NCBI RefSeq assembly: GCF_029910215.1 | Contig: NZ_CP110397.1 | Coordinates: forward strand, 248,001-312,000 | Origin: Paraburkholderia sp. D15 | Lineage (GTDB): Bacteria; Pseudomonadota; Gammaproteobacteria; Burkholderiales; Burkholderiaceae | Length of the DNA: 64,000 nt | Direction of reading: 5' to 3' | Shown: positions 46,512 through 61,102 of the stretch, piece after piece | How the letters are laid out: the number at the start of each line of letters is the position of its first letter | How positions within the stretch are numbered: position 1 is the stretch's first letter | Made by a program: the position numbers and the translations under genes | Notes under the pieces: generated by a model | What the model was told of the DNA's origin: nothing | Database searches by the model: none | The model's input: the letters and a program-made list of their open reading frames with translations, nothing else

Positions 46512-46920
46512 CCAAGGTCGGTTGGTTAAGCGGCCCAACTGTCAGGATCCACAGTGTCACCACGATCTTGCGCACAGACACGGCTATCGCCTGTGCGGTG
46601 AAGGCGTCGCCTATCGCGTCGAGCCCGTGGCCGGTTAAGCGTGCTGGTCGTGCTACGGTGTATCGCCCTTCGGCAAGCGCGCAAGGCAAGCAGTCAGCTT
46701 GGTGACCTGACGATGCCATTGAGATTGGCGAGAATATCGGTTTTGGGAGGAAATATGCTGTATGAACTGGCAACCCTATCCTGCTCACTTTTGGAGCAGG
46801 ACGTCGTTTCCGCTGCTGCACATCGCTGGTCGTCTGATCCTGACGCGGAGGGCCAAATCCTCGGGGCGTGGCGCACTGAGATCGGTGAACTTGCAAAAAT
46901 TGTGGTGTTGCGCGGCTTGA

Positions 46921-46965
46921 GGGGCGGCCGGGATTCGTAAAAAATCCGCCACATCTCGATCTAAG
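46921..46965 (+). repeat. Left terminal inverted repeat of the Tn3-family transposon
   Basis: Begins GGGGCGGCCGGGATTCGTAA and runs about 45 bases to just inside the tnpA stop. Matches the right end at 42 of 45 positions (differences at positions 18, 40 and 45). Confidence 0.85.
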
Positions 46966-49942
46966 CTGCTGATTTAAATGCGAAATCAATGGTTGGATCG
47001 AGTGGCGGAACGGATCGCTGGAGATCCAGCAGATAGTCGCCGAGCCGATTGATGTGCTCCCGCCGGTACGGCGACAGCACTTTGAGCACCTCGGCGTCGA
47101 TCGGATGCCCCTTCTGCTGCAACTCCTTCAGTTTGCGCGACATCCACTGCACGTTGTACAGGATCACCATGTTCGCGACGAGGTGGTTGTACTTGATCAC
47201 TTTGCGCTGCTCGTGCCGGACGTTTTCGGCGATGACGCCTTCGCCGCCGAACATCAACCACTGCGCGAAGTCATTGAACTGCTCGCTCTTGTTGGTCGCC
47301 GCGTGAATCGTGCGGCGCAACTCCGGGTCATTGAGATATTTCAGCAGGAACAGTGTCCGGATCACACGCCCGAGTTCCCGAAACGCAAAGTACAGCTTGT
47401 TCTTCGTGCTCTCCGAGCCGAGGCGACGCAGTATTGTCGACGGCGTCATCTTGCCCGCCTTGATCGATACCGCGACGCGCATCATGTCAGGATAGTGTCG
47501 CTCGATCAGCGTCCAGTCGATGGTCTGGCGACAAAGGCTGTCGATGTGCTCATACTTGCGACGCTTGTCGGCCTTGTACAGCACGAGGTCCTTGATGTTG
47601 CGCATGCGCGGCATCAGGTTGATGCCCGTCACGTAGGACAGGCCGAACACCGGACCGCTCTGCGCCTGCGTATCGCCGTGGATCGTGTCGGGCTTGATGT
47701 CGGCACCGTTCTGGATCAGTCCGTCAAGGATATAGACGGCTTCGTGAACGCCACACGGGATGAAGTGGCTGAACAGCGCGATGTACATGTCGGACACGTG
47801 GTAGTAGCCGATCCCGCCGTATCCGCCATAGCGGACGTGATACTCGGACAGCAGGTTCTGCTCGTACAGGCTCCATTTGGTGCCGTCCGCCGGCGCACGC
47901 TTGCCACTGCCCCAGTATTTCGGCAACGCGAACTGGTTGTACGCGTTGATCACTTTCACGTTCGCCTTGTCGAGCCGCTCCTCGGTGACATGTTTCAGGT
48001 TCAGCCAGGCGACCTGCTTGCGGCTGAGCCCTTTCACCGAGCGCGCCGTCTGGCTTGGGCCGAGATTGCAGCCGTAGCAGAACAGCGTGGTGATGAAGCG
48101 CTTGCGCGGATCGTCGACCTTCGCGTCGAACCCGGACAGCGGGCCGAACAGTTTATGCAGGTCCAGCCACTGCTCGGTTTCGGTGAGGAGATCCAGGATG
48201 CTGATCTGCGGCATCGATGCCGTGATCGCCTGATCGATCAGCGTCCGGTTCGGTGGTTCGGGCTCCTTGTCCGGTTTGTGAATGACGAGTTCCTGATCGA
48301 CGAACTCGATGCTGTCGTTCGCCGGGAAGTTCGCATCGGTCTCGTCGAGCGCCGCGTTCAGACGGTCCCGCAGATCCTTCGTGAAGCTCTTGCCGTTCGT
48401 GGGCAGCCCCACGATCTCGCAATAGCGCGGCAGCTCACGCCTGAATTCCTCGTCGGAGACCTGGTGCATGCGGTAGTCGTCGAAGCGATCGCTGCCCTCG
48501 ACGTAGAGATCGCCGGAATTCAGCTCGCGCATGATCTGGCTGAAGACGCCCAGTTCAAAGAACCGACGATGCAGCATACGGCTGTCCCGACCGTGCGGGA
48601 ATACCGCACGCATCCACTTATCCGGTAGCCAGTCCAGCGGCAGGTTTGCGAGGTCGTTCTCCGTGAGCAGCAGGTATTCGCGGTGGGCGTTCCGGGAGCC
48701 CTGCAGCCAGGCGAGTGCGACCAGTACCGCGCGGTCCTGCGAACTCGATCGCAACGGCAGCACGTCCAGGCACTGGAACAGCAGTGAGCGCTGGTTCCGG
48801 TACGGCACGAGCATGAACGGCAGGTCGAACTGGCCGGCATAGGCGATGTGCTCGTTGCATTGTGCAAGCGCTGCGGATGGGTCGCCGAGCGCCTCGCGGA
48901 TTTTCGGCAACCGTTGGCGTTCTGATACCCCTTCATCCTGAAGGATCTGCAGGACGTCCCGGAACTGTCCGACCAGTCCCTCCAGCACGCCGGTGTGTTC
49001 GAGTTGATATTTTTGAAGCCGGACCTTCGCGTAGGTCTCGAACTTGCGCATGACCTTGATGAAGATCTCGGCGACATCGTCAAGTGCCTTCTGCAACTGC
49101 GCCTGGATGAAGAGTACCGCGAGCGCATGACGCTTCGCTACCTTGAGCGAACGCAGTTCCGCGACATTGAGCGCCCGTGCTTCAGTGACTAGCTGTGCCC
49201 GCTTGCTGACGGACAGGATCGCGGGCGGTGCCGGCAAGCCTTCCGCCAGTTTCCTGATCCCGTTGATATGTTTGAGGAAGCTCGCGATCGCCCGCGCAGC
49301 TGGCCTCTTCGGCTCCTGCTTCAGATCGTCCCAGCACGACTTGCCGGCCTTGATGACGAGGACCCCATCGATCCTTTCGATCATGGCCGCGTCCAGTGCA
49401 CCGGAGATCGTCGTCCAGATCGTTTCATTGAGGTCGTTGCGCGCCTGCGTGGCGATGCGCTGAAGCGTCGACAGTGGCGGTAGTTCGTAACGGCGGCGGA
49501 CCAGTTCCTCGACCAGCACGTTGATGATGTCGGGCAGCTCGACTTTGGTCCTTGCCTCCCCCGACGCGAGATCGGCGAGCCACACCGTCTCGTCCGCGTC
49601 GAACGGCTGGATGTCGAGCCAGGCGCGCAGCAGCTTCTGGTGCCGGATGCGAGTTCCGGATATGTCGTACCGCGCGATCGCCGTCCGGGGCAACGCCCGG
49701 GCTCGCATCGCGGTCCGGATGTGATCGATGATGACCGGCGGCACGTCCGAGAGCATCGGGAAGTAGCCGAGACGCTGCAGCAGTTTCAACTGGACCATGA
49801 TCAGCATGGCGGTAGCTTCCTGCCGGGATTGCCGGCGCACAAAGCGGATTTCCGCGGTGCTCGGCGTGAACGCAGCTTTCAGCTCCGCCGCGCCCGGCTC
49901 GGCAGGCAGCACCGGATAGATGGTCTCGTGGACGGTGCTCAT
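46961..49942 (-). CDS. tnpA: Tn3-family transposase (DDE)
   Basis: 993 residues, full length for the family. N-terminal DNA-binding domain (FVRRQSRQEATAMLIMVQLK), a long helical middle, then the catalytic core: YYHVSDMYIALFSHFIPCGV with the first Asp, KPDTIHGDTQAQSGPVFGLS with the second, and the last acidic residue around SEQFNDFAQWLMFGGEGV. It cuts and joins both transposon ends to form a cointegrate. Its ATG overlaps the recombinase stop by four bases, so the two are made together. The stop lies inside the left inverted repeat region. The gene looks intact. Confidence 0.95.
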   Translation of the reverse strand: MSTVHETIYPVLPAEPGAAELKAAFTPSTAEIRFVRRQSRQEATAMLIMVQLKLLQRLGYFPMLSDVPPVIIDHIRTAMRARALPRTAIARYDISGTRIRHQKLLRAWLDIQPFDADETVWLADLASGEARTKVELPDIINVLVEELVRRRYELPPLSTLQRIATQARNDLNETIWTTISGALDAAMIERIDGVLVIKAGKSCWDDLKQEPKRPAARAIASFLKHINGIRKLAEGLPAPPAILSVSKRAQLVTEARALNVAELRSLKVAKRHALAVLFIQAQLQKALDDVAEIFIKVMRKFETYAKVRLQKYQLEHTGVLEGLVGQFRDVLQILQDEGVSERQRLPKIREALGDPSAALAQCNEHIAYAGQFDLPFMLVPYRNQRSLLFQCLDVLPLRSSSQDRAVLVALAWLQGSRNAHREYLLLTENDLANLPLDWLPDKWMRAVFPHGRDSRMLHRRFFELGVFSQIMRELNSGDLYVEGSDRFDDYRMHQVSDEEFRRELPRYCEIVGLPTNGKSFTKDLRDRLNAALDETDANFPANDSIEFVDQELVIHKPDKEPEPPNRTLIDQAITASMPQISILDLLTETEQWLDLHKLFGPLSGFDAKVDDPRKRFITTLFCYGCNLGPSQTARSVKGLSRKQVAWLNLKHVTEERLDKANVKVINAYNQFALPKYWGSGKRAPADGTKWSLYEQNLLSEYHVRYGGYGGIGYYHVSDMYIALFSHFIPCGVHEAVYILDGLIQNGADIKPDTIHGDTQAQSGPVFGLSYVTGINLMPRMRNIKDLVLYKADKRRKYEHIDSLCRQTIDWTLIERHYPDMMRVAVSIKAGKMTPSTILRRLGSESTKNKLYFAFRELGRVIRTLFLLKYLNDPELRRTIHAATNKSEQFNDFAQWLMFGGEGVIAENVRHEQRKVIKYNHLVANMVILYNVQWMSRKLKELQQKGHPIDAEVLKVLSPYRREHINRLGDYLLDLQRSVPPLDPTIDFAFKSAA

Positions 49943-51618
49943 GCCGGCGGCCGTCGCGCAAAAATCCGCTCGATCTGCCGGGTCCGCTGGACTTCGTCGT
50001 CGTCCAGGTAGATCGAGGTGGTCGTGATTGACGCGTGACGCAGGTTATCGCGCACGGTGGTAAGCGTCGCGCCGTTGGCAAGTGCGTGTGTCGCGTGCGT
50101 ATGGCGCATCCAGTGCGGGGTCGCGCGCCGCAGCTTGCCGGCGAGCGCCGGGTGGTCCGCCTCGATGGCGTCGGCGGCGGCATGGAAGAACCGGCGCAGC
50201 ACCTCCCTCAGGCGCGGCGTGGTGATGCCGCCGGGCGCATCGAGATGGCCAAGCAGCGACGTGTCCGGCTGCCAGCGGGCTGAGGTTACCGGTAGTCCAC
50301 GCTGAACGAGATATTGGTCCAGCGCGTGCGTTGCCAGCGGCGGCAACACCACCTTGCCGGCCTTCGCGCCCTTGCCGGTGAGATGCAGCCAACGCTCGCC
50401 GCGCGCGCCGGTTTCGATGCCGCCGAGCGTGACGCCGACCAGCTCGCCCGCGCGCAGGCCGGTCGCGTATCCAAAGTCGAGCACGAAGCGCAGACGCTGC
50501 GCGGCCGGTACCGTCCAGCCGTGCGACCATTCGAGCCCGTCGGCAATGGTCCGGATCAGTTCCCACTCGCCCGCCGTAAAGGCCCGCGAGATGTCCAGTT
50601 CACCGTTGCGCTGCGCCCCGCGCACCTTGAGACCCGCGAACGAATTCGCCAGGACGTAGCGCTGCTCGATCAGCCAGCGGAACATCGCACCGAGCACAGA
50701 CAGTGCGTAGGCGATTGAATCTGGCGACAGCGCGCCCGTGAACGGACGCCACTCGGGCGATGATCGCGGCCGCGCCGGCGCGACCCAGCGGGCACGCGGC
50801 GTTGGATGGCGTAGGAAGGCGCGATAGGCGGTCGCATCCTCGCTCGTGAGCGAGGACAACGCCTTGCCGCGCTCGACGATGGCCCAGAGCATCAGGCGCT
50901 CGGCCTCCCTGCGATAGGCGCGTCGTGTTTCAGCGGCTTCGTGCCGTTCGAGCCAGGCGCTGATCGCCTGATAGTCATTATCGGCCTCGAGCGCGCACAT
51001 TCGCTTCGGCGCGCGGAAAGTGCCGCGCGACCCATCGACTTCATGTGGTACGTGAATGCTTTCCCACGGCACCACGGGGTCTGGCGTCGCCACCACGACC
51101 AGTGCGCGAGCCCGCTCGGTGAGCGCCGGATGAGCGGCAAAGAAGCCTTCGATCCGGCGAGCGCTTCGTTCACCGAGTCCGGGAATCGCAAGCCACCACT
51201 GCCGGCGACGGGGAATGCGCATGGTCAGATCGGCCAGCGTCCGGATGCCGTGCCGATGCAGCACCGGGACAACGCGAGGCGGCAGCCAGGCATCGACTGG
51301 ATCGCTCACCTGCGGGTGCGGGACCGGCAGCGACGGCAGCATGTCCAACGCCCGGGTCGCCGCCTTGCGGTTACGGCTCCGTTCGCCGGCCGCACACTGG
51401 AACGGCCGGGCCAGATCGGCGCGGTGACGGTTGAGGGCGAAATCGGCGATCTGCCGGCGAATGCAGCCAATCACGCCACGCGCCGAATGGCCCCCTTCGA
51501 GCGCCTGCGGGCAATAGCGCTCGACTGCCTCGCGCGAGTCGACGCCCGCGTACCACGCGCGCAGCGCGGACAGGGACGGGGTGTCGGGAAGGGAGGGTGG
51601 TGGCGGAACGTTCGGCAT
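49939..51618 (-). CDS. Long tyrosine recombinase of the Tn3 element (TnpI-like resolvase)
   Basis: 559 residues from ATG 51618. The N-terminal ~200 residues are unusual and contain a helix-hairpin-helix-like stretch (WLAIPGLGERSARRIEGFF). A SAM-like core-binding domain follows, then the catalytic domain with ATGLRAGELVGVTLGG (Arg), LTGKGAKAGKVVLPPLA (Lys), HWMRHTHATHALANGATLTT (His-x-x-Arg), DNLRHASITTTSIYL (His) and the nucleophilic Tyr. It should resolve cointegrates in place of a serine resolvase. TATAAT lies 6 bases before the ATG, so the transcript may be leaderless. Much longer than Tn4430 TnpI (about 280 residues). Confidence 0.85.
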   Translation of the reverse strand: MPNVPPPPSLPDTPSLSALRAWYAGVDSREAVERYCPQALEGGHSARGVIGCIRRQIADFALNRHRADLARPFQCAAGERSRNRKAATRALDMLPSLPVPHPQVSDPVDAWLPPRVVPVLHRHGIRTLADLTMRIPRRRQWWLAIPGLGERSARRIEGFFAAHPALTERARALVVVATPDPVVPWESIHVPHEVDGSRGTFRAPKRMCALEADNDYQAISAWLERHEAAETRRAYRREAERLMLWAIVERGKALSSLTSEDATAYRAFLRHPTPRARWVAPARPRSSPEWRPFTGALSPDSIAYALSVLGAMFRWLIEQRYVLANSFAGLKVRGAQRNGELDISRAFTAGEWELIRTIADGLEWSHGWTVPAAQRLRFVLDFGYATGLRAGELVGVTLGGIETGARGERWLHLTGKGAKAGKVVLPPLATHALDQYLVQRGLPVTSARWQPDTSLLGHLDAPGGITTPRLREVLRRFFHAAADAIEADHPALAGKLRRATPHWMRHTHATHALANGATLTTVRDNLRHASITTTSIYLDDDEVQRTRQIERIFARRPPA

Positions 51619-51703
51619 CGAAAGATTATAGGCAGCGGGATGAAGGTAGCGTGACGACTGGGTGAGACGCGTTTCGTAAAACACCAGTTTTGTCGAAAAA
51701 TAC

Positions 51704-51735
51704 AACCCTATCGATAATAGGGGTTAGCGATAGGG
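51704..51735. other. Candidate recombination site for the transposon's tyrosine recombinase
   Basis: CCCTATCG at 51706-51713 and CGATAGGG at 51728-51735 are perfect inverted arms around a 14-base spacer that itself contains a second, overlapping inverted pair (AACCCTAT / ATAGGGGTT). Position is just upstream of the recombinase gene, where internal resolution sites of TnpI-type Tn3 elements lie. Arms and spacing resemble a tyrosine-recombinase core site. Confidence 0.45.
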
Positions 51736-51760
51736 CCACATCTTTCTCACGTACCACCCC

Positions 51761-52498
51761 CTAGTACTTCGCGGATTGGCTTATGATCGCGCCGTCAATC
51801 TCCGTATGCGTGAGGCCGTACCTTTCCATGCGGGCACGGTGGTCGGCTGAACCGAGATACTCGATAAGTCGCTTGTTCACAGCCTTAATAAGGTCGTGAT
51901 TGGACTTATTGAACGAGAATGCGCCGATAGGAACACGTCCGTCTCCGCCGTTGTTGTGCGCGACCGCTTCCAAGGCTGCGTTATCCGCACTTTCTGCAAG
52001 GACACGATTGCCGACAGCGGTGCTGGCGTATGCATCGATCATTCCAGCGCGAAGGGCGCTTATTGCATCCGGCTGGTCTTTGAACAGGACGATCTGGCGA
52101 TCGAGCACGCCCGCCGACTTCGCGGATTCAAACTGCACTTGCCCCGCAATGATTCCAAGCCGCGCATCGCTCCGCGCCGCTACTGCCTCGTAACTCGTAA
52201 GCACTTTCGGATTACCGCAATGCAGCAGGAATCCATCGCCTATCGACCAGACCGGTACACTGAACGCAACACGTTGTGCACGTTCAGGGGTCACGAACAA
52301 GGGCACGTTCATGTCCCAGCGGCCTTCCTGTATACCGGGCAAAAGTTCGTCGAACGAGGTCAGGTGATGATGTATGGTGGATACACCGATAGCCCGAAGC
52401 ACTACGTCAGCTAATTCGATGTCCGCACCCATCGCAGCTTGATCTCGGCCGGTCCAGCCGAAAGGTGGTTCCTCGATGTATGCGATTGTGATTTTCAT
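51761..52498 (-). CDS. Solute-binding-like protein without a signal peptide
   Basis: 245 residues from ATG 52498. The fold is the type II periplasmic binding protein of amino-acid ABC transporters: ITIAYIEEPPFGWTGRD, AMGADIELADVVLRAIGV, SFDELLPGIQEGRWDMNVPL, and a late DAYASTAVGNRVLAESAD. It begins directly at the first strand of the fold, so no export signal is seen; an upstream ATG at 52561 adds polar residues only. No permease or ATPase gene is nearby. It follows the MFS gene by 49 bases. It may be a cytoplasmic ligand-binding protein or a cyclohexadienyl-dehydratase-like enzyme. Confidence 0.75.
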   Translation of the reverse strand: MKITIAYIEEPPFGWTGRDQAAMGADIELADVVLRAIGVSTIHHHLTSFDELLPGIQEGRWDMNVPLFVTPERAQRVAFSVPVWSIGDGFLLHCGNPKVLTSYEAVAARSDARLGIIAGQVQFESAKSAGVLDRQIVLFKDQPDAISALRAGMIDAYASTAVGNRVLAESADNAALEAVAHNNGGDGRVPIGAFSFNKSNHDLIKAVNKRLIEYLGSADHRARMERYGLTHTEIDGAIISQSAKY

Positions 52499-52547
52499 CG
52501 TTGCGCCCAAGGTTTTGGGGCGGCCATCTCGGCCACCCGCTTGAAAG

Positions 52548-53987
52548 TTAACTAGATGCATCTTCCAGCGATCGCCCTTTCGTCGACGGCCCGACGATCG
52601 CGACGACCATTGCTGCGATCAGCAGGACCACATCGCTGATCACGAACACGAACAGCTTGCCTTTCAGTACAGCGAACACGCCAAAGACGAGCAGCAGGAT
52701 AATGGCGCCCGCTCGCCCCCATGCCGAGGCGAGCCCCATTCCGGTTGCGCGGATCTCGGTCGGATAGAGCTCTGGCGTATAGCTGTAGATCGCGGTGGAA
52801 CCTAACGCCAGACAGAAAGCCATTAGCCCGCCAAAGGTCATCAACGCGGTCGAGGTTGTTGAGAGTCCGAACAGCGTTCCAAAGATCGCGGTGCCGATGA
52901 ACGCGATTACCGCCGTCGGCTTGCGGTCGAGCCAATCGACGATATAGCCGCCCAGCACGTAGCCGGGAATGACTGACGCGTAAATCGCGATCGAAAACTG
53001 GAAAGATTTGACGATAGTGAAGCCTTCCATCGCAAGCAGCGTCGGCACAAACGTCATGAACGTATAGAGCACGCCATATTCCGCGAACCACGCGAGCCAC
53101 ATTATCAAGGTCAGCTTCAGGTAACGCGGGCCCAGCAGATCGCGAGCCGTGTAGGTGCGGGCTGGCGTAGCCTGCGCGGCCGGCTTCGCGGCCGCAACGT
53201 TCGTCGTGCCGGCGTTCAGCTTTCGCCCGACGCGCTGCTCGATCGACGCAAGCGCCGCTTCGGCTTCGGGCGCACGTCCGTTGCGAAGCAGCCAGCGCGG
53301 CGATTCCGGCAAGCCGGAACGCATCAAACCGACGACAATCGCAAAAGGCAGCGTCAAAAACAATGCGGCGCGCCATCCCAAGCTCGGAATGATGTTAAGC
53401 GCCCAAATGGGGGAGAACGCGATGCCGAGCGCAAAAAAGCCCATCATCAAGCCGCCAAGCTTGCCGCGCACGCGCGTCGGCCACAGTTCCGCCAGATAAG
53501 GCGGAACGATCGAGCTTTCCGCGCCGACGAACAGCCAGGTGAAGAAGTTCAGCGCAGCGAAATTCCATATGTTGTCGACCAAACCGCGCGATGCGGAGAA
53601 CAGCGAATACAGCACGAGTGTCAGTATGATCATGCGCTTGCGGCCGTATCGGTCCGCCGCGAATCCAGCCACTGCCGAGCCGACCAGGTACCCGGCCAGC
53701 CCGATTGCGGAGACGACACCGATCGTCGCGGCGCTGAAGCCCCACAACGGACGCAAAGTTGCGAGCACGAAGCCCGTGATCACCGTGTCGAGCGTATCGA
53801 AGAACAGCGACAACGCCGCGACGATCAGCACGGTGAAGTGGAATCGCGATACAGGCAACTGGTCAAGACGGGCCGCGATCTGCTGCTGCGTGAGCAGCGA
53901 CGGATGCTTCACCGCCGTATCGGTGGCAAACGTTGCGGCGGGTGACGGCTGCGTCGGCTGGGCCGACGAAGAAGGTGTGGTCATCAT
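52548..53987 (-). CDS. MFS transporter (sugar/aromatic-acid porter type)
   Basis: 479 residues from ATG 53987 (GAGAGGCC before it); the open frame extends 32 codons upstream without support. Twelve membrane helices; motifs SAVAGFAADRYGRKRMIILT between helices 2 and 3, VGAESSIVPPYLAELWPTRV, and LPESPRWLLRNGRAPEAEAA before the central loop, then YIVDWLDRKPTAVIAFIG in the second half. Typical of the general sugar/AAHS-like porter group. It lies 61 bases after the amidohydrolase gene and is expected to import that enzyme's substrate. Confidence 0.88.
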   Translation of the reverse strand: MMTTPSSSAQPTQPSPAATFATDTAVKHPSLLTQQQIAARLDQLPVSRFHFTVLIVAALSLFFDTLDTVITGFVLATLRPLWGFSAATIGVVSAIGLAGYLVGSAVAGFAADRYGRKRMIILTLVLYSLFSASRGLVDNIWNFAALNFFTWLFVGAESSIVPPYLAELWPTRVRGKLGGLMMGFFALGIAFSPIWALNIIPSLGWRAALFLTLPFAIVVGLMRSGLPESPRWLLRNGRAPEAEAALASIEQRVGRKLNAGTTNVAAAKPAAQATPARTYTARDLLGPRYLKLTLIMWLAWFAEYGVLYTFMTFVPTLLAMEGFTIVKSFQFSIAIYASVIPGYVLGGYIVDWLDRKPTAVIAFIGTAIFGTLFGLSTTSTALMTFGGLMAFCLALGSTAIYSYTPELYPTEIRATGMGLASAWGRAGAIILLLVFGVFAVLKGKLFVFVISDVVLLIAAMVVAIVGPSTKGRSLEDASS

Positions 53988-54048
53988 GCTGGCCTCTCGA
54001 GCGCCGGCTTCGCGCCTGCGCATAGGACTGTTTATCGGTTCACTGCGC

Positions 54049-55440
54049 TCAGGCGGCACCAATGCCAGGATGGAATTGCCCATATCCAGGCTTGCCGACG
54101 ATCTCGCCGTGGTCCATCACCGTGCTGCCGCGCACGATGGTGTAGACCGGCATGCCTTTGGTTGTCACGCCTTCCCACGCGGTATAGCCCGCTCGGGTGT
54201 GCATATCGGCGGCCCGGAAGGTGTTTTCCGCTTTCATATCGACGATGGTGAAGTCGGCGTCCGCCCCCACCTGAATGCGTCCTTTCTTCGGGTACTGCCC
54301 GAAGCGTTTCGCAGGCGCTTCGGCACAGAGCTTCGCCACGTCCCGCAGATCCAGCTTTCCTTGATTGACGGCGTTGAGCACGAGCGGAATGAATTCCTGC
54401 GCGCCCGTCACGCCGAGCGGAACGGAAAAGGCGTCTTGCCATCCCGGTGTGATTTCTTCGAGCGTATGAGGCGCGTGCTCGCCGACCAGCATGTCCGCCG
54501 TGCCGTCGCGCACGGCCTGCCAGTTTTCTTCGGGCGCATAGGCCCATGCATAGGTGCCGGGCCCGACTTTCTCGGCCTGCTCGCGTGTCATGAACAGCGT
54601 CGCGGATTCCATCTCGCCCGAGATATCGACGCCCTGGCTTTTCGCAAAGCGCACGAGATCGTTCGCGGCCGGCGGCATCACTCCCATGTGCAGTACATGC
54701 AGGCGCACGCCTGTCAGGCGTGCGTAGTACGTCGAGGCCGCGAGTCCGGCCGCCATGCCGTGGCCATACATGTAGCCGCGCTCGTAGGCTTCCATGTAGT
54801 CGCGATTGCTCGTTTTGCCTGCGTTGATGTAGTCGCGAAACGTCAGGCGTTTGCACCATTCGCTGTCGTCGTGATGCACCGCGCAAAGCAGGCCGGTATC
54901 GGCAACGGCTTCATAAAGCTCGTGCAGGATGCCGTGATCGACCACGCCCAGCTCCGAGATGTACGGGTACACCTCCTTCACGTGGCGCGTATTGAACACC
55001 TTGATTCCGATCGCGCCGGCCTTCGCGAGCGCGTCTATCGTCTTCGGATACAGGCCCCCGCCGTACAACGCGTAGTCCACCAGCGCTTTCGGCGCGATCG
55101 TCGAGCGCTTCAGCTCGAATGATTCGAGCGTCGTCGGATGCGGATCGTTATTCGTCATGTCGATGCAGAACGTGATTCCACCGGCCGCCGCCGCTGTGGT
55201 GCCTGATCTGAAGTCTTCCTTGTATGTGTGTCCGGGCTCGCGGAAATGGCAGTGGACATGCCAGAGCCCCGGCAGCACATCGAGCCCCTTCGCATCGATC
55301 ACCTTCGCGGTATCGGGCGGGCTGCCCGCAACGGTTAGCCCCACTATCTTTCCGTTCGCCACGCACACGTTCTGCTGTGTGCTGCCTTCCGGCGTATGCA
55401 CCGTCCCATTTGCGATCACCAGATCGACCTGTTGACTCAT
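54049..55440 (-). CDS. Divergent dihydroorotase/allantoinase-family cyclic amidohydrolase
   Basis: 463 residues from ATG 55440 (CGGAGAGCG upstream). The fold is clear: LVIANGTVHTPEGSTQQNVC, VLPGLWHVHCHFREPG, GAIGIKVFNT with the likely carboxylated Lys, AVHHDDSEW, and HVLHMGVMPPAANDLVRFAK. Two catalytic positions differ from the family: the usual D-x-H-x-H reads H-V-H-C-H, and the catalytic Asp of DHAPH is Glu (VGEHAPHTLEEI). So this is probably not a housekeeping dihydroorotase but an enzyme opening a related ring such as a hydantoin or ureide. First gene of the cargo operon, divergent from a GntR regulator. Confidence 0.82.
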   Translation of the reverse strand: MSQQVDLVIANGTVHTPEGSTQQNVCVANGKIVGLTVAGSPPDTAKVIDAKGLDVLPGLWHVHCHFREPGHTYKEDFRSGTTAAAAGGITFCIDMTNNDPHPTTLESFELKRSTIAPKALVDYALYGGGLYPKTIDALAKAGAIGIKVFNTRHVKEVYPYISELGVVDHGILHELYEAVADTGLLCAVHHDDSEWCKRLTFRDYINAGKTSNRDYMEAYERGYMYGHGMAAGLAASTYYARLTGVRLHVLHMGVMPPAANDLVRFAKSQGVDISGEMESATLFMTREQAEKVGPGTYAWAYAPEENWQAVRDGTADMLVGEHAPHTLEEITPGWQDAFSVPLGVTGAQEFIPLVLNAVNQGKLDLRDVAKLCAEAPAKRFGQYPKKGRIQVGADADFTIVDMKAENTFRAADMHTRAGYTAWEGVTTKGMPVYTIVRGSTVMDHGEIVGKPGYGQFHPGIGAA

Positions 55441-55460
55441 TCCGCTCTCCGCATTAAAAA

Positions 55461-55493
55461 TACACAATAAATACACATAGGATTTTTGGTGTA
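55461..55493. promoter_or_regulatory. Candidate GntR operator in the cargo's divergent promoter
   Basis: Between the amidohydrolase and the GntR gene, TACAC occurs at 55461-55465 and 55472-55476 and its reverse GTGTA at 55489-55493, in a strongly AT-rich stretch. Short GT/AC half-sites are typical of FadR-subfamily operators. The divergent promoters of both cargo operons should overlap it. Confidence 0.5.
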
Positions 55494-55559
55494 TAAAATG
55501 TTTGTGTCAAGCGGGGGCTTTCGCTAAACTCATGGGCAGACAGTCATGGTCTTTCACTG

Positions 55560-56336
55560 ATGAACAGAAAGAAGTCGCCTGCCGTCGAGCAGGCCAAAGC
55601 AGTCAAGGGATCGGGCGCGAGCAAGGCGTATCACCTGCTGCGCAGTCGTATCGTGTCTCTGGAGATGCCGCCTGGTGAGGACATCGACGAGCAGGCGCTG
55701 GTGGAGGAATTCGGGATTTCCCGCACCCCGCTCAGGGAGGCAATGATCCGGCTCGCGGCCGAGGGGCTGATCTCGCTGCTGCCCAATCGCGGCGCACGGG
55801 TCGCGTCTATGGACATCCCGCAGTTGCGGGAACACCTGGAGGCGTTCGAACTGGCGCAGCGCGCCACGACGCGTCTCGCCGCGCTAAGGCGTTCCACGGC
55901 TGATCTAAAGCGTATCGAGGATCTAGTCGCGGCGTTCGAGGAGGCCCACGCGAACAACGATGTGAACGGCATGATCGACGGAAACTGGGAGCTGCATCTC
56001 GCAATCGGCAATGCGTGCGGCAATCGCGTCCTCGCCAAGATCTACGCGAATTTGCTGACAGAAAATCTTCGCGTCGCCCGTCTCGCGATGAGCTACGAGA
56101 CTTTCCCGACCGCCGAAGCCAGGCGTTCGCATCTGGACAACATACTGAGAGAACACCGGGACATTCTCGACGCGATCAGAAATCAGGATGCGGATCGTGC
56201 CGAAGACCTTGCGTGCTCGCATACCGGCCTTGCACGCAAACGGGTGACCGAATACATCTCGCAGAGCGCGGTGGGCGGCCTCTCAATCAGTCCTCGTTCA
56301 ACGCACGCTCTCAACGGAACGCTCAACGATGTGTGA
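55560..56336 (+). CDS. GntR-family regulator (FadR/VanR type)
   Basis: 258 residues. N-terminal winged helix: AYHLLRSRIVSLEMPPGEDI, EQALVEEFGISRTPLREAMI, RLAAEGLISLLPNRGARV. The C-terminal helical FCD domain has the metal-binding His residues in NWELHLAIGNACGNRVLAKI and HLDNILREHRDILDAIRNQD. It likely represses the divergent amidohydrolase-MFS operon until a pathway acid binds. Its end overlaps the next gene by 8 bases, tying it to the CxxC and CobW proteins. Confidence 0.9.
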   Translation: MNRKKSPAVEQAKAVKGSGASKAYHLLRSRIVSLEMPPGEDIDEQALVEEFGISRTPLREAMIRLAAEGLISLLPNRGARVASMDIPQLREHLEAFELAQRATTRLAALRRSTADLKRIEDLVAAFEEAHANNDVNGMIDGNWELHLAIGNACGNRVLAKIYANLLTENLRVARLAMSYETFPTAEARRSHLDNILREHRDILDAIRNQDADRAEDLACSHTGLARKRVTEYISQSAVGGLSISPRSTHALNGTLNDV

Positions 56337-56670
56337 AGTGTGTGCAGTTTTTGGAGTCGGCCAGCACTGGGCCGACTCGGCTGACCCGATGGGTTTGCAC
56401 AACGTAGCGGCTGGCATTCTTGAAAACCGCGCTGAACGCGCGAAGCGATTGCAACTGATCAACCGCATCCTGCGGCCGGCCGGCCTCGCCGCGAGCGACT
56501 GGGATGGCGAGTCTTTCAGCGTTGAAGACACACAAGGGCGCCGCCAGATCGCACCCGATCTCTCTGCGCTCTGGCGCGTCGCTGAAAAGCTCGGCAAGGT
56601 TCACATCGACCCTCTTGACGCGGGCTTCTTGCCTGCCACTTCACCATGGTCAGACTCGTACCGCGCCTAG
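56329..56670 (+). CDS. Conserved small CxxC protein of unknown function
   Basis: 113 residues starting MCEVCAVFGVGQHWADSADP, with a CxxC at the very N-terminus and nearby His that could bind a metal. The middle is helical (AERAKRLQLINRILRPAGLA) and is followed by DWDGESFSVEDTQGRRQIAP and LSALWRVAEKLGKVHIDPLD. It overlaps the GntR gene by 8 bases and the CobW gene by 25, so the three are translated together. I do not know a function; the pairing with a CobW metallochaperone suggests zinc handling for the amidohydrolase. Confidence 0.7.
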   Translation: MCEVCAVFGVGQHWADSADPMGLHNVAAGILENRAERAKRLQLINRILRPAGLAASDWDGESFSVEDTQGRRQIAPDLSALWRVAEKLGKVHIDPLDAGFLPATSPWSDSYRA

Positions 56671-57647
56671 AACTGAATGTCGTGACCGGCTTCCTCGGCA
56701 GCGGCAAGACGACACTGCTGAAGCGCTATCTGCAGCAGCAGGCTGTCGGTTCAACGCTCGTCATCATCAACGAATTCGGCCGCGAATCCATTGACGACCG
56801 CATCACGCTTCATCTGAAGTCCGAGATCGAAACAATCGCCGACGGGTGTCTATGCTGCACGGTGCTCGGTCAGTTGCAGCAGACGCTGCTGCACATCCTG
56901 ACGCGGCGCGCGCGCGGGGAGCTGCCTGAACTGCAGCGGATCATCGTCGAGACCAGCGGACTGGCCGATCCTACGCCTATCCTGGGCACGGTTCTGTCGG
57001 ACGAGAATCTCCACGAGTACATCAAGGTCGGCCCGTGCGTGACAGCATTCGACGCGCTCGAAGGCCTCCAGACGCTCAAAGAGTTCGCCGAAGCCGCTCC
57101 GCAACTCGCTGCCGCAGATCGAGTGATCGTGACCAAGACCGACCTTGCAGATAGCGCGGACATCGAAACAGTGATAACGGCGATCCGCGACGTCAATCCA
57201 GCATGCGATGTCACGCTGAACGACGTGCCGGACACAATCTTCGCACCCATCGAAAGTGTCGAAATCGTCAACAGCCCGCTTCGTGCGGCGAACACATCCG
57301 TGCATTTGCACACTGGCTCGGTGCGCAGCTTTTCCACCGTGCTCGACCGATCAGTCGATTGGGCGACGTTTTCCGTGTGGCTCACCGCGCTGCTCAATCG
57401 ACACGGTGACCATATCCTGCGATTCAAGTCTGTACTGGCCGTGCGTTCCGCAGGTAAGCTGGTGGTTCAGGGCGTGCGGCATCGTGTGTATCCGCCGTCC
57501 CACTTGCCTGCCGAAGACAATGAAGACAACGTTTCGCGGCTCGTCTTCATTTCCAACGGCATCAACGACCAAATAATTCTCGACTCCCTCAAGCGCTTTA
57601 CTGCAGCAACGTCCACGTTCAACGGGCTTTCCTGGCCAGCTTTGTAG
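56646..57647 (+). CDS. CobW-family GTPase (COG0523, metallochaperone-like)
   Basis: 333 residues. GTP-binding Walker A NVVTGFLGSGKTTLLKRYLQ, the metal motif DGCLCCTVLG (CxCC), ETSGLADPTPILGTVLSDEN, and the NKxD-like VTKTDLADSADI. The C-terminal CobW_C domain has SVRSFSTVLDRSVDWATFSV and VQGVRHRVYPPSHLPAED. Members deliver zinc or cobalt to partner enzymes. Being in the cargo with a metal-dependent amidohydrolase suggests it loads that enzyme. Last gene before the right inverted repeat; a small hairpin (GGACC-AAAA-GGTCC at 57686-57699) follows and may terminate transcription. Confidence 0.88.
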   Translation: MVRLVPRLELNVVTGFLGSGKTTLLKRYLQQQAVGSTLVIINEFGRESIDDRITLHLKSEIETIADGCLCCTVLGQLQQTLLHILTRRARGELPELQRIIVETSGLADPTPILGTVLSDENLHEYIKVGPCVTAFDALEGLQTLKEFAEAAPQLAAADRVIVTKTDLADSADIETVITAIRDVNPACDVTLNDVPDTIFAPIESVEIVNSPLRAANTSVHLHTGSVRSFSTVLDRSVDWATFSVWLTALLNRHGDHILRFKSVLAVRSAGKLVVQGVRHRVYPPSHLPAEDNEDNVSRLVFISNGINDQIILDSLKRFTAATSTFNGLSWPAL

Positions 57648-57720
57648 CCGTATCAACGGCCACATCTTAGTAAGCTAATCATTCGGACCAAAAGGTCCAA
57701 TTTGATAATTAAATCATTAG

Positions 57721-57765
57721 GTTAGGTCGAGATGTGGCGGATTTTTTGCGAATCCCGGCCGCCCC
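57721..57765 (-). repeat. Right terminal inverted repeat of the Tn3-family transposon
   Basis: Reverse complement begins GGGGCGGCCGGGATTCGCAA at 57765 and reads inward to 57721. Together with the left copy it marks the element. Confidence 0.85.
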
Positions 57766-58044
57766 TCCAGACGGCTCTGGCGCGTGCTGCGACGGTTCTT
57801 CGTGCTGGTGGCCGATGCAATCCAGGATGATCGGCCGGCGATCGCCGAAAAGCTGCGCCGCGCGAGCCCGCACTGGATGCGCCACACGCATGCGTCGCAC
57901 GCGCTGGCCCGAGGCGCCGAATTGATCATGGTGCGCGATAATCTGCGCCATTCGTCGATCTCGACAACGTCGACCTATCTGCATAGCGACGAAGTACAGC
58001 GAGCACGGCAGTTCGATCAGGCATTCGGGGTGCGTAAGACCTGA
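57766..58044 (+). pseudogene. C-terminal fragment of a second tyrosine recombinase
   Basis: Immediately outside the right inverted repeat the frame reads SRRLWRVLRRFFVLVADAIQ, KLRRASPHWMRHTHASHALA, VRDNLRHSSISTTSTYLHSD and EVQRARQFDQAFGVRKT to a TGA at 58044. This is the catalytic end (His-x-x-Arg, His, Tyr) of a recombinase clearly related to the one in the transposon but not identical. The N-terminal ~80% is missing and is not found at the left flank. The transposon probably inserted into, or recombined with, this gene. Confidence 0.75.
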
Positions 58045-58603: not shown

Positions 58604-58789
58604 TTATGATAGAAAATTGCGCTTACCTTGTTCATCCCCCGATACGACCGGTTTGTCCGTGCTGCCTGCGTTGTCGGTGGAAGCTGCGGAGTCCGCTGGG
58701 TGGCAACCGGCCGTCAGCGCCATGCAGGCGGCGACCAGCGCGAGGCCGGCGAGGCTTTTGGGTCGTATAGGGGAAGCGTTAATTTGCAT
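58604..58789 (-). pseudogene. Truncated efflux adaptor (RND/HlyD family), N-terminus only
   Basis: From ATG 58789 the frame gives a lipoprotein signal (KSLAGLALVAACMALTAGCH) and the start of a periplasmic adaptor (PADSAASTDNAG), then meets a stop after 61 residues. Intact adaptors have about 400. The ATG overlaps the stop of the upstream outer-membrane factor, the classical czcC-czcB order. The DNA further left is unrelated, so the adaptor and the inner-membrane pump were lost through a rearrangement near 58600. Confidence 0.65.
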
Positions 58790-60209
58790 GGGTATCGTTC
58801 GGGGTCCGGGCGGCGATGAAGGCATCGTGGATCACGCTGCCGAGCAACGCCTGCATGGCGACATGTTGCTCGGCAAGCGACTCGCGTAGCGTGGCAATGT
58901 CGATCTGTCTGGATAGCGCGGCAGTCTGCGCGTCCGTGTAGGCGGTAAGTGTGATGTCGTGTTCAGCGTAGGCTTGGGCGGCGTGCGTGGCGGCGGCATC
59001 CGTATCGGGCAAAGTCGCCTCGGTTTGTTTCAGTTGACGCGCGAGGATTGCGCTGTCGGCGCGCAGGCGCGCTACGTCCGCATAGGCCTGATTGAGCCGC
59101 ATCTGATATTCGTCGCGTAAGCGCTGCCGCGTCGCTTTTTCGATTGCGACGTTGCCCTGGTTACGGTTGAAAATCGGCAAACTCAGATTGATCTGGAAGC
59201 CGCTGGTGTAGATATTGGATGTGTCGCGCGCGCGCACGAAACCGACCGAAAGACTGGGAAACTGGCTCAGAATCGCCGCGCGATATTTCTGCTCCTGTGC
59301 CTCATAGCCAGCCTGCAAGGCGATCAGGTCGGGACGCCGGTGCGCAAGCCCGCTCAAGGCCGCATCGATCGCCGCATCGGTTGCCTCGGGAAGAGCATCG
59401 CTGTCGCCGGGTTGCATCTGAAGCTGGACTTCTACCTCCTGCGCCAGACCGAGAAGTGCGTTCAGGTCATGATGGGTCTGCCCGGCCGCGCGCTGAGCAT
59501 CGAACAACTGCCTGCGCGCGTCGATGTAAGCAAGCTGCGCGGCGCCAAGCGTATCGTCACCCAGATTGCCGTCGCGGCGAGCCTCGGTCATTCGCTCGTA
59601 GCGCGTTCGCGTGAGTTCGAGTTGCTGCTGTAACAGCGGCAATGTGTGCTGCTGAAAGCGTGTCTTGATGAATAGTTGCCGAGCCTGCGCGACAGTTTGC
59701 CACTCCTGCCACAACAGACCTAAATCGGTTTTGGCGGCCGTTGCGTCGGCGGATTGCTTGTTCGCGCTGCGCAGGACGATCGCCATTACATCGATGCTCA
59801 AACCGTAATTGAACGCGCGTGTAGTACCGGCGGCGCCGGGATAGTCGCTCGATATGCTCACCTGCGGGTCGGGCAACAGACCCGCGGAATAGGCCTGCGC
59901 GCGCGCAATGCCGAGGTCGTCGCGAATCAGTTTGAGATCGGGATTGTTGGCGACGGCAAGCATCGCGACTTCGTCGATGTCGAGTCCATCACGTGGATCG
60001 AAACGGTGCGAGGCCAGCTCGGGTAGCGGCATCGCCGATGAATCTATACAGATGCGCCCAAGCGAGCGGGTAGAGGTCGACGTATCGGCCGGTGTGAGTG
60101 GATCACGGTGATACCAGCTGCAGCCGGTCATCAGCATCGCGACTACTATTGCCAGGACACGCAGGCGAAAAACCGTCGCGGTCAGTGAAACAGGAAAAGA
60201 AACTAACAA
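58779..60209 (-). CDS. TolC-family outer-membrane efflux factor (CzcC/CusC-like)
   Basis: 476 residues. Lipoprotein-type signal (VAMLMTGCSWYHRDPLTPAD) followed by two long helical OEP repeats: DEVAMLAVANNPDLKLIRDD, QAYSAGLLPDPQVSISSDYP, RPDLIALQAGYEAQEQKYRA and LPIFNRNQGNVAIEKATRQR. The family forms the outer-membrane channel of tripartite metal or drug pumps. It is divergent from the two-component genes at 60.4 kb, and the adaptor gene behind it is truncated, so the tripartite pump cannot be assembled from this locus alone. Confidence 0.88.
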   Translation of the reverse strand: MLVSFPVSLTATVFRLRVLAIVVAMLMTGCSWYHRDPLTPADTSTSTRSLGRICIDSSAMPLPELASHRFDPRDGLDIDEVAMLAVANNPDLKLIRDDLGIARAQAYSAGLLPDPQVSISSDYPGAAGTTRAFNYGLSIDVMAIVLRSANKQSADATAAKTDLGLLWQEWQTVAQARQLFIKTRFQQHTLPLLQQQLELTRTRYERMTEARRDGNLGDDTLGAAQLAYIDARRQLFDAQRAAGQTHHDLNALLGLAQEVEVQLQMQPGDSDALPEATDAAIDAALSGLAHRRPDLIALQAGYEAQEQKYRAAILSQFPSLSVGFVRARDTSNIYTSGFQINLSLPIFNRNQGNVAIEKATRQRLRDEYQMRLNQAYADVARLRADSAILARQLKQTEATLPDTDAAATHAAQAYAEHDITLTAYTDAQTAALSRQIDIATLRESLAEQHVAMQALLGSVIHDAFIAARTPNDTHAN

Positions 60210-60424: not shown

Positions 60425-61102
60425 GTGCGTCTGCTAGTTGTCGAAGACGAACCGAAAACAGCGGCTTATTTGAAAAAAGGGCTGGAGGAATCCGGCTATT
60501 CGGTCGACGTCGCCAACGATGGGCTACAAGGCCTGGTCCTCGCTCAGGAAAAAGAGTATGACGTCATCGTACTCGACGTCATGTTGCCGGGACTGGACGG
60601 CTGGTCCGTCGTCAAGGCGCTTCGCCGTACGCGCGCAACGCCGGTCCTGTTCCTGACTGCGCGCGACGACGTAGACGACCGTGTTCGAGGGCTGGAATCA
60701 GGCGCGGACGATTATCTGGTCAAACCGTTTGCATTCGTCGAGATGCTGGCGCGAGTGAGAACGCTCGCACGGCGCGGGCCGCCTCGCGAAAGTGAACTGA
60801 TCAAAATCGGCGATCTGGAAATGGACGTCAATCGCCGGCGAGTCAAGCGCGGAGGAGCCCGCGTCGACCTCACACCGCGCGAGTTTTCTCTGCTTCAGCT
60901 ATTGGCGCGCCGTCACGGCGAAGTGCTAAGCCGCACGCAGATCGCTTCCTACGTCTGGGACATGAATTTCGATAGCGACACGAATGTTGTCGAGGTCGCG
61001 ATTCGCCGGCTGCGCACCAAGATAGACGACGAATACTCCAGCAAGCTGATTCATACGGTACGGGGTGTCGGCTACGTGCTTGAATTGAAGGAAACGGTTT
61101 GA
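60425..61102 (+). CDS. Response regulator of a heavy-metal two-component system (CzcR/CusR-like)
   Basis: 225 residues from GTG 60425 (GGAAGGAGGAGCC upstream). The receiver is complete: [37 protein letters not shown] with the phosphorylated Asp, [12 protein letters not shown] and [12 protein letters not shown]. The winged helix has [20 protein letters not shown] and [20 protein letters not shown]. The [18 protein letters not shown] start is characteristic of copper/zinc/silver regulators. It would activate the divergent efflux operon. The stop overlaps the kinase start. Confidence 0.93.

What the first reader, a model, noticed from the sequence alone, without database searches (positions are those of the whole stretch)
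46921..57765. Tn3-family catabolic transposon with a ring-opening amidohydrolase cargo
Near-perfect 45-base inverted repeats enclose tnpA, a long tyrosine recombinase and a coherent accessory set: divergent cyclic amidohydrolase, MFS importer, solute-binding-like protein, GntR regulator, CxxC protein and CobW GTPase. It reads as a self-contained mobile unit for uptake and hydrolysis of a cyclic amide or ureide. I know of no described Tn3 element with this cargo, though I cannot search.
Basis: partly seen in the sequence, partly recalled or inferred. Interest (0 to 1): 0.8.

Follow-up and report, generated by a model that had tools for sequence, protein, structure and literature searches.

The report
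Tn3-type transposon carrying ring-hydrolase module
A jumping gene of a well-known family carries a ready-made, conserved set of genes that probably imports and splits an unidentified ring-shaped nitrogen compound, including an enzyme with altered active-site residues and a likely helper pair that loads its metal.

Summary
The element runs 46919-57767 (10,849 bp); its inverted repeats match at 44 of 46 positions (next best in the window 26). TnpA is a full Tn3-family transposase. Upstream lies a 559-aa DUF3701 tyrosine recombinase with a palindromic core site (51706-51735), where DNA shared with sister elements stops. The whole element, at 91% DNA identity with other flanks, also sits on a public Paraburkholderia plasmid. 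It is a mosaic: the tnpA block is ~99% identical between the copies, the rest 78-97%.

The cargo is not peculiar to the transposon. Amidohydrolase, GntR, CxxC protein and CobW GTPase form a conserved module in Beta- and Alphaproteobacteria, with an MFS or a branched-chain-type ABC transporter. The hydrolase is an unusual subfamily: the metal-ligand Asp of cyclic amidohydrolases is Glu (121 of 121 aligned), and DxHxH is HxHxH. The CxxC-CobW pair also lies near an unrelated PuuE-like hydrolase (9 of 9 other genomes with CxxC among 398), suggesting a metallocentre-maturation pair for ring-opening hydrolases. Substrate, metal and activity are untested. This copy has no target duplication; its flanks look rearranged.

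The parts
46919..46964 (+). left terminal inverted repeat (IRL)
   Evidence: 44/46 match to right end; aligned with ends of sister elements
46961..49942 (-). tnpA, Tn3-family DDE transposase, 993 aa; its stop lies inside IRL
   Evidence: NF033527 686.4 bits (cut-off 500), PF01526 positions 1-389 of 389
49939..51618 (-). DUF3701 tyrosine recombinase, 559 aa from the ATG at 51618 (open frame reaches 51705); overlaps tnpA by 4 bp; probable cointegrate resolvase (inferred)
   Evidence: PF12482 + PF00589; start chosen as in the annotated copy L003
51669..51692 (-). conserved GAAAC/GTTTC block between core site and recombinase start; possible accessory binding sites
   Evidence: alignments; coordinates; function inferred
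51706..51735 (-). recombinase core site CCCTATCGCTAA-N6-TTATCGATAGGG; cargo/backbone junction
51761..52498 (-). substrate-binding-protein-like protein without signal peptide, 245 aa from the ATG at 52498 (read)
   Evidence: PF00497; EhuB model 163.7 bits, below its cut-off 190.9; 13 relatives' N-termini printed begin at the mature fold
52548..54083 (-). MFS transporter (best NCBIfam: aromatic acid/H+ symport family, 215 bits, below cut-off 418.55); a start downstream of the AH stop is likely, as annotated in L003
54049..55440 (-). cyclic amidohydrolase (AH), 463 aa from ATG 55438-55440, variant active site H61xH63xH65, K147, H189, H251, E321
55456..55510 (-). divergent control region: TTGACACAAACATTTTATACACC and repeated GTGTAT half-sites, conserved in Achromobacter and Pandoraea modules (the TTGACA-TATACA spacing of 9 is not sigma-70-like)
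   Evidence: 7-sequence alignment, coordinates; operator function inferred
55560..56336 (+). GntR/FCD transcriptional regulator, 258 aa
   Evidence: PF00392, PF07729
56329..56670 (+). CxxC protein, 113 aa, Cys2 and Cys5 invariant in 31 aligned rows, no known family
   Evidence: no Pfam/NCBIfam hit; alignments; no PDB fold match at E<=0.001 for a model of pLDDT 75.5
56646..57647 (+). CobW/COG0523 GTPase, 333 aa, with CXCC (CLCC) motif
   Evidence: PF02492, PF07683; motif read from the translation
57722..57767 (-). right terminal inverted repeat (IRR)
57772..58041 (+). outside the element: C-terminal 90 codons of another DUF3701 recombinase, cut off at the IRR
   Evidence: 67% aa to own recombinase residues 498-586; PF00589; relative G789 matches nt 5-533 of the 533-nt flank at 80% and continues into a recombinase aligned over 558 residues

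Best explanation
A Tn3-family transposon (IRL-tnpA-DUF3701 recombinase-core site) that has picked up a pre-existing catabolic module. Shown: intact ends and open frames; a second copy of the whole unit elsewhere; cargo joined to the backbone at the recombinase core site; the cargo existing as a module without the transposon. Inferred: TnpA makes cointegrates and the tyrosine recombinase resolves them at 51706-51735, in the manner of TnpI of Tn4430. Inferred cargo function: the MFS protein imports a cyclic amide, imide or ureide; the GntR protein senses it or a product and controls both arms of the divergent operon; the amidohydrolase opens the ring with a binuclear metal centre whose usual Asp ligand is Glu; CxxC and CobW load or guard that metal centre.
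Against: No target-site duplication here or in L003 and L004, and the two flanks of this copy do not match each other, so no insertion event is visible. The tnpA block and the rest have different histories. No enzyme activity, substrate, metal or resolution was tested. Of 55 core pairs 8 were dropped as sharing upstream DNA, and that criterion itself lowers identity in the nearest 60 bp (the -120 to -60 stretch, not used for selection, is 0.22-0.29). Four of the 18 AH loci are one genus (Pandoraea) and four of the nine other CxxC genomes are one genus, so counts are not independent. The CobW could serve general metal supply.
Confidence: 0.7

Rival explanations
1. CxxC and CobW are not enzyme maturases but general metal-starvation genes that travel with the operon, or CxxC is a further catabolic enzyme acting on the ring-opened product.
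For: A subset of COG0523 proteins is tied to zinc homeostasis (PMC2770081, passages). CxxC has invariant Trp, Arg, Gly and Asp beyond the two Cys and a confidently modelled alpha/beta part.
Against: They keep company with AH while the transporter type changes (MFS or branched-chain-type ABC), and with a second hydrolase fold, next to a GntR/FCD regulator; no Zur site was looked for.
Confidence: 0.3
2. The AH subfamily is not a ring-opening hydrolase: with Asp replaced by Glu and DxHxH by HxHxH it may do another reaction, or act on a linear amide.
For: Both changes are fixed in 121 of 121 subfamily members aligned, while seven of seven distant relatives aligned have Asp at both places; none of the 25 NCBIfam families shown (of 53 matched) reaches its cut-off.
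Against: The other ligands (His63, His65, Lys147, His189, His251) are kept; fold and closest structures are L-hydantoinase and allantoinases.
Confidence: 0.2
3. The long recombinase is not the transposon's resolvase but an independent integrase-like element sitting next to tnpA, and the core palindrome is its own attachment site.
For: DUF3701 recombinases are common (164 of 398 family genomes hold a relative at E<=1e-150, with or without tnpA), and in 20 of the 30 loci fetched no tnpA is detected within the roughly 1.5 kb held on either side, 19 of these 20 with a palindrome 75-130 bp upstream.
Against: It overlaps tnpA by 4 bp, and recombinase and tnpA stay linked in 13 other loci (two of them, L004 and L006, hold the same element); recombinase collinear with tnpA and core site upstream is the TnpI/irs layout (PMC7157771, passages).
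Confidence: 0.15
4. The IR-bounded unit is a dead remnant: a chance sandwich of an old tnpA end and an unrelated IR.
For: No target duplication, mosaic identity, truncated recombinase at the right end.
Against: Same gene order between equivalent IRs in L003 with unrelated flanks; all ORFs open.
Confidence: 0.08

Closest known systems
Tn4430/Tn5401-type Tn3 elements (TnpI + irs)
   Same: Tyrosine recombinase gene collinear with tnpA, inverted-repeat core site just upstream of it
   Different: Recombinase has 559 aa with a DUF3701 domain; carries catabolic cargo; found here in Burkholderiaceae
Unnamed Tn3 element on Paraburkholderia largidicola plasmid AP028203.1
   Same: Whole element and cargo in the same order, 91.1% DNA identity
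   Different: Different insertion site; recombinase and cargo 78-97% against ~99% for tnpA; I found no paper that describes it
Catabolic Tn3 elements such as Tn4651 (toluene)
   Same: Tn3 backbone carrying a catabolic operon
   Different: TnpS/TnpT resolution there (PMC7157771 passages); other substrate class here
Cyclic amidohydrolases (L-hydantoinase 1gkr, allantoinases 3e74/8hfd/3hm7, dihydroorotase)
   Same: Fold, the His and Lys of the metal site
   Different: Asp ligand replaced by Glu321; DxHxH is HxHxH; below the cut-offs of all 25 NCBIfam families shown
COG0523/CobW G3E GTPases, e.g. nitrile hydratase activator Nha3
   Same: CobW domains and CXCC motif; gene sits with the presumed client enzyme
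   Different: Partnered with an orphan CxxC protein; presumed client is a ring hydrolase
HP0310/PuuE-like NodB-fold hydrolases
   Same: Share the CxxC-CobW neighbours in other genomes
   Different: Unrelated fold; not in this element

Membership tests
Tn3 family | ~1000-aa DDE transposase TnpA | tested here: met
   993 aa; NF033527 686.4 bits against 500; PF01526 positions 1-389 of 389
Tn3 family | related terminal inverted repeats of 38-40 bp or longer | tested here: met
   44 of 46; same ends in L003-L006
Tn3 family | site-specific resolvase with a resolution site | tested here: inconclusive
   Tyrosine recombinase and palindromic core present; activity not testable here
Tn3 family | short target-site duplication (5 bp, recalled) | tested here: inconclusive
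   None at this copy, whose flanks look rearranged, nor in L003 or L004; of five copies read two show repeats, ATCCC (L005) and AAGGTATC (L006)
TnpI/irs resolution type | tnpI collinear with tnpA, IR1-IR2 core upstream of tnpI | tested here: met
   layout as in PMC7157771 passages
TnpI/irs resolution type | direct repeats DR1/DR2 beside the core | tested here: inconclusive
   a conserved GAAAC/GTTTC block lies at 51669-51692; no DR pair was established
TnpI/irs resolution type | small TnpI recombinase (about 284 aa, recalled) | tested here: not met
   559 aa with DUF3701; works like TnpI, not filed as TnpI
Cyclic amidohydrolases (DHO/HYD/ALL) | fold of the family | tested here: met
Cyclic amidohydrolases (DHO/HYD/ALL) | metal centre of four His, one carbamylated Lys, one Asp | tested here: not met
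   His and Lys kept, Asp is Glu in 121 of 121; PMC9863593 says almost all members have the Asp (passages). Works like one; filed only as a divergent relative
allantoinase / dihydroorotase / dihydropyrimidinase equivalogs | NCBIfam curated cut-off | tested here: not met
   231.2 against 357.85; 247.6 against 482; 195.3 against 393.25
COG0523/CobW | GTPase domain, CXCC motif, C-terminal domain | tested here: met
   PF02492, PF07683; CLCC in the translation; motif per PMC2770081 passages
EhuB ectoine-binding protein | NCBIfam cut-off and export signal | tested here: not met
   163.7 against 190.9 bits; the window protein starts MKITIAYIEEPPFGW, without a hydrophobic leader, as do 13 relatives printed

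The most novel reading that the evidence does not exclude
CxxC and CobW are a dedicated two-protein metallocentre maturase for ring-opening C-N hydrolases of two unrelated folds (the Glu-type amidohydrolase and PuuE/HP0310-like enzymes), and the Glu/His active-site changes mark use of a metal other than zinc; the transposon spreads enzyme, transporter, sensor and maturase together, so that the pathway works in any recipient.
Probability: 0.3. Interest if true: 0.75.

Novelty: new variant of a known kind. Interest (0 to 1): 0.52.

Why it matters
It ties a Tn3 element to an uncharacterised but conserved ring-hydrolysis module and gives a short list of testable predictions: a core site for a long tyrosine recombinase, an amidohydrolase subfamily with a changed metal ligand, and an orphan CxxC protein whose neighbours point to metal loading for two unrelated hydrolases. 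The clients of many COG0523 GTPases are unknown (general knowledge), and this names candidates.

Tried and rejected
Rejected: allantoinase, dihydroorotase or hydantoinase as a firm name for the amidohydrolase (cut-offs not met); EhuB as a firm name for the SBP-like protein; simple insertion into the truncated recombinase (no recombinase piece in 3.9 kb of left flank; the left-flank matches in four other genomes are 71-73% over at most 174 nt); a second copy in the same genome (a 280-nt left-end query finds only the two ends).

Led nowhere: the CxxC model has low confidence at the CxxC end (pLDDT 75.5 overall) and no PDB match at E<=0.001; the context of an SBP relative on AP023177.1 gave no hint; the amidohydrolase on plasmids (E<=1e-60) finds only AP028203.1 and two haloarchaeal relatives at 34%.

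Weak points of single calls: one of the four outgroup rows (L026) was read in a wrong frame and one (L017) lacked its N-terminus; redid the comparison by tblastn. In one search the printed count of 108 of 120 mainly reflects absence of the literal motif PFGW and is no evidence of N-terminal extensions; 13 N-termini were printed. The palindrome scan had no shuffle control, and in 1 of 35 rows (L058) the best palindrome lies 337 bp away and is unlike; the weight rests, for which I chose 12 cores (L006 left out as the same element as L004; more distant rows left out) and lost L037 for lack of upstream DNA. Genome searches score few candidates a genome (4 for the amidohydrolase for CxxC, 3 for the recombinase).

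Papers: ten searches of an open-access library gave no description of this element, no paper holding both DUF3701 and Tn3 family, and no link of CobW to a cyclic amidohydrolase among the listed titles and the passages I read. The one paper holding hydantoinase, CobW and gene cluster (PMC3676327, passages) lists a CobW-like ORF on a metagenomic fosmid that also holds a hydantoinase B/oxoprolinase among acetophenone carboxylase genes, another enzyme family. Passages only were read of PMC2770081, PMC3084791, PMC9863593, PMC7157771, PMC3414803, PMC2864759 and PMC3676327. Subscription papers and ISfinder were not searchable.
Full report
WHAT IS THERE. The element spans 46919-57767. The 46-nt ends match at 44 positions; the next best inverted match in the window has 26 and 30 shuffles reach at most 27. 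Within the same genome a 280-nt left-end query finds only itself and the right end.

BACKBONE. tnpA (46961-49942, minus) is a complete Tn3-family transposase ending inside the IR. It overlaps by 4 bp a recombinase with DUF3701 and Phage_integrase domains (49939-51618, minus; the open frame reaches 51705, but the annotated copy L003 starts at the equivalent of 51618). About 115 bp upstream lies CCCTATCGCTAA-N6-TTATCGATAGGG at 51706-51735. In 35 rows of related recombinases (one of them the window's own gene again) the best 12-bp-arm palindrome within 400 bp upstream scores 8-12 of 12. Fourteen loci, own copy included, have tnpA beside the recombinase, and there it lies 113-132 bp upstream with 9-11 of 12 (L004 and L006 hold the same element; no shuffle control). 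DNA shared between elements with different cargo stops at this site: of 12 cores chosen, 11 had enough upstream DNA, giving 55 pairs; 8 pairs with 50% or more identity over the 60 bp upstream were dropped; in the other 47, mean identity per 10 bp is 0.20-0.36 upstream and 0.86, 0.86, 0.97 across the core. The selection lowers the nearest 60 bp by construction; the -120 to -60 stretch is 0.22-0.29 without it. This layout is that of TnpI-type Tn3 elements: tyrosine recombinase collinear with tnpA, core site upstream (PMC7157771, passages). That paper lists TnpR, TnpI and TnpS+TnpT as the known resolvase types. Action as a resolvase is inferred.

MOBILITY. Of 72,556 plasmid records, 85 match some part at megablast sensitivity; one, AP028203.1 (P. 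largidicola), carries the whole element and cargo at 91.1%, with equivalent IRs and unrelated flanks. Three other plasmid loci read here (L004-L006; L004 and L006 the same element) carry the backbone with other cargo. The two full copies are mosaics: 46919-49918 is 96-100% identical per 250 bp, recombinase and cargo 78-97%. Neither full copy has a target duplication. L005 shows ATCCC and L006 AAGGTATC; L004 shows none. The right flank of the window copy is the C-terminal end of another DUF3701 recombinase; relative G789 matches nt 5-533 of the 533-nt flank at 80% and its recombinase aligns over 558 residues. The 3.9 kb of left flank tested has no recombinase piece. The simplest reading is rearrangement next to the element after it arrived (inference).

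CARGO. Given the amidohydrolase, a scan of GTDB species genomes returned 18 loci (close relatives only). CxxC and CobW lie beside it in 16 of 18 and GntR too in 15 of 18; the two others are 10.4- and 3.5-kb contigs. The transporter is MFS in 6, a branched-chain-type (Liv) ABC set in 10; in 5 of these an Amidohydro_2 gene follows (L016 served as query, and its genes match BPD_transp_2, ABC_tran, Peripla_BP_6 and Amidohydro_2). None of the 18 shows tnpA, recombinase or IR hits in the held flanks. Four of the 18 are Pandoraea. So the module is wider than the transposon. In 398 genomes drawn from the family the amidohydrolase (E<=1e-120) is found in the own genome and five others of one genus. The AH-GntR intergenic region keeps TTGACACA...TATACA and GTGTAT repeats in 7 of 7 sequences aligned: the two transposon copies, Achromobacter and four Pandoraea; so the control region moved too. 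The SBP-like gene is in both transposon copies and in none of the 18 loci; it lacks a signal peptide, as do the 13 relatives whose N-termini were printed, so it may be an intracellular binding protein or enzyme.

CxxC AND CobW. A profile of the CxxC protein finds it in 10 of 398 phylum genomes at E<=1e-5; the Glu-type amidohydrolase is in 1 of 398 at E<=1e-90, the own genome (apparently the same draw, by the handles listed). In the nine others CobW follows CxxC in 9 of 9 (gap up to about 740 bp) and a polysaccharide-deacetylase-family hydrolase (64-100% to that in L079, itself one of the nine) lies within about 3.2 kb in 9 of 9. Four of the nine are one genus. L076 has in addition an Asp/Glu/hydantoin racemase and a hydantoinase-like gene. 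The protein in L079 matches PuuE allantoinase models weakly (88 bits, cut-off 424.6) and PDB 3qbu at 538 bits; that 3qbu is H. pylori HP0310 is recalled. The HP0310 authors think a small-molecule substrate more likely and note closeness to PuuE allantoinase, though their enzyme did not act on allantoin (PMC3084791, passages). That CxxC-CobW serves the hydrolases is inference from neighbourhood.

VERDICT. A real Tn3-family transposon of a TnpI-like layout with an unusual recombinase, carrying a conserved but uncharacterised ring-hydrolysis module. New variant of a known kind; the most novel part is the module and not the transposon.

Noticed in passing
window 57772-58041 (+): C-terminal remnant of a second DUF3701 recombinase abutting the right IR; in relative G789 (L085) the flank continues into a recombinase aligned over 558 residues.
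   Followed up: partly
L041-L063, upstream of each recombinase: DUF3701 recombinases without a detected tnpA (20 of 30 loci fetched, about 1.5 kb of flank) have palindromes such as CTATTxxxATAA-N6-TTATxxxAATAG 75-130 bp upstream in 19 of 20; what they move is unclear.
   Followed up: partly
L075-L083: CxxC-CobW pairs near polysaccharide-deacetylase-family (PuuE/HP0310-like) hydrolases; neighbours seen include an amidase (L075), SDR genes (L079) and SBP_bac_8 proteins (L075, L079).
   Followed up: partly
L017:291-2718: CobW next to an Asp-type amidohydrolase (32%) without a CxxC hit, near the Glu-type module of the same genome.
   Followed up: no
L016:12666-18561: Downstream of the Xanthobacter module: Amidohydro_2, an RNase Z-like MBL hydrolase and a second ABC transporter with an NMT1-like binding protein, possible hints to the pathway.
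   Followed up: no
window 58779-60209 (-) and 60425-61102 (+): Outer-membrane efflux protein (OEP) and a response regulator just right of the element.
   Followed up: no
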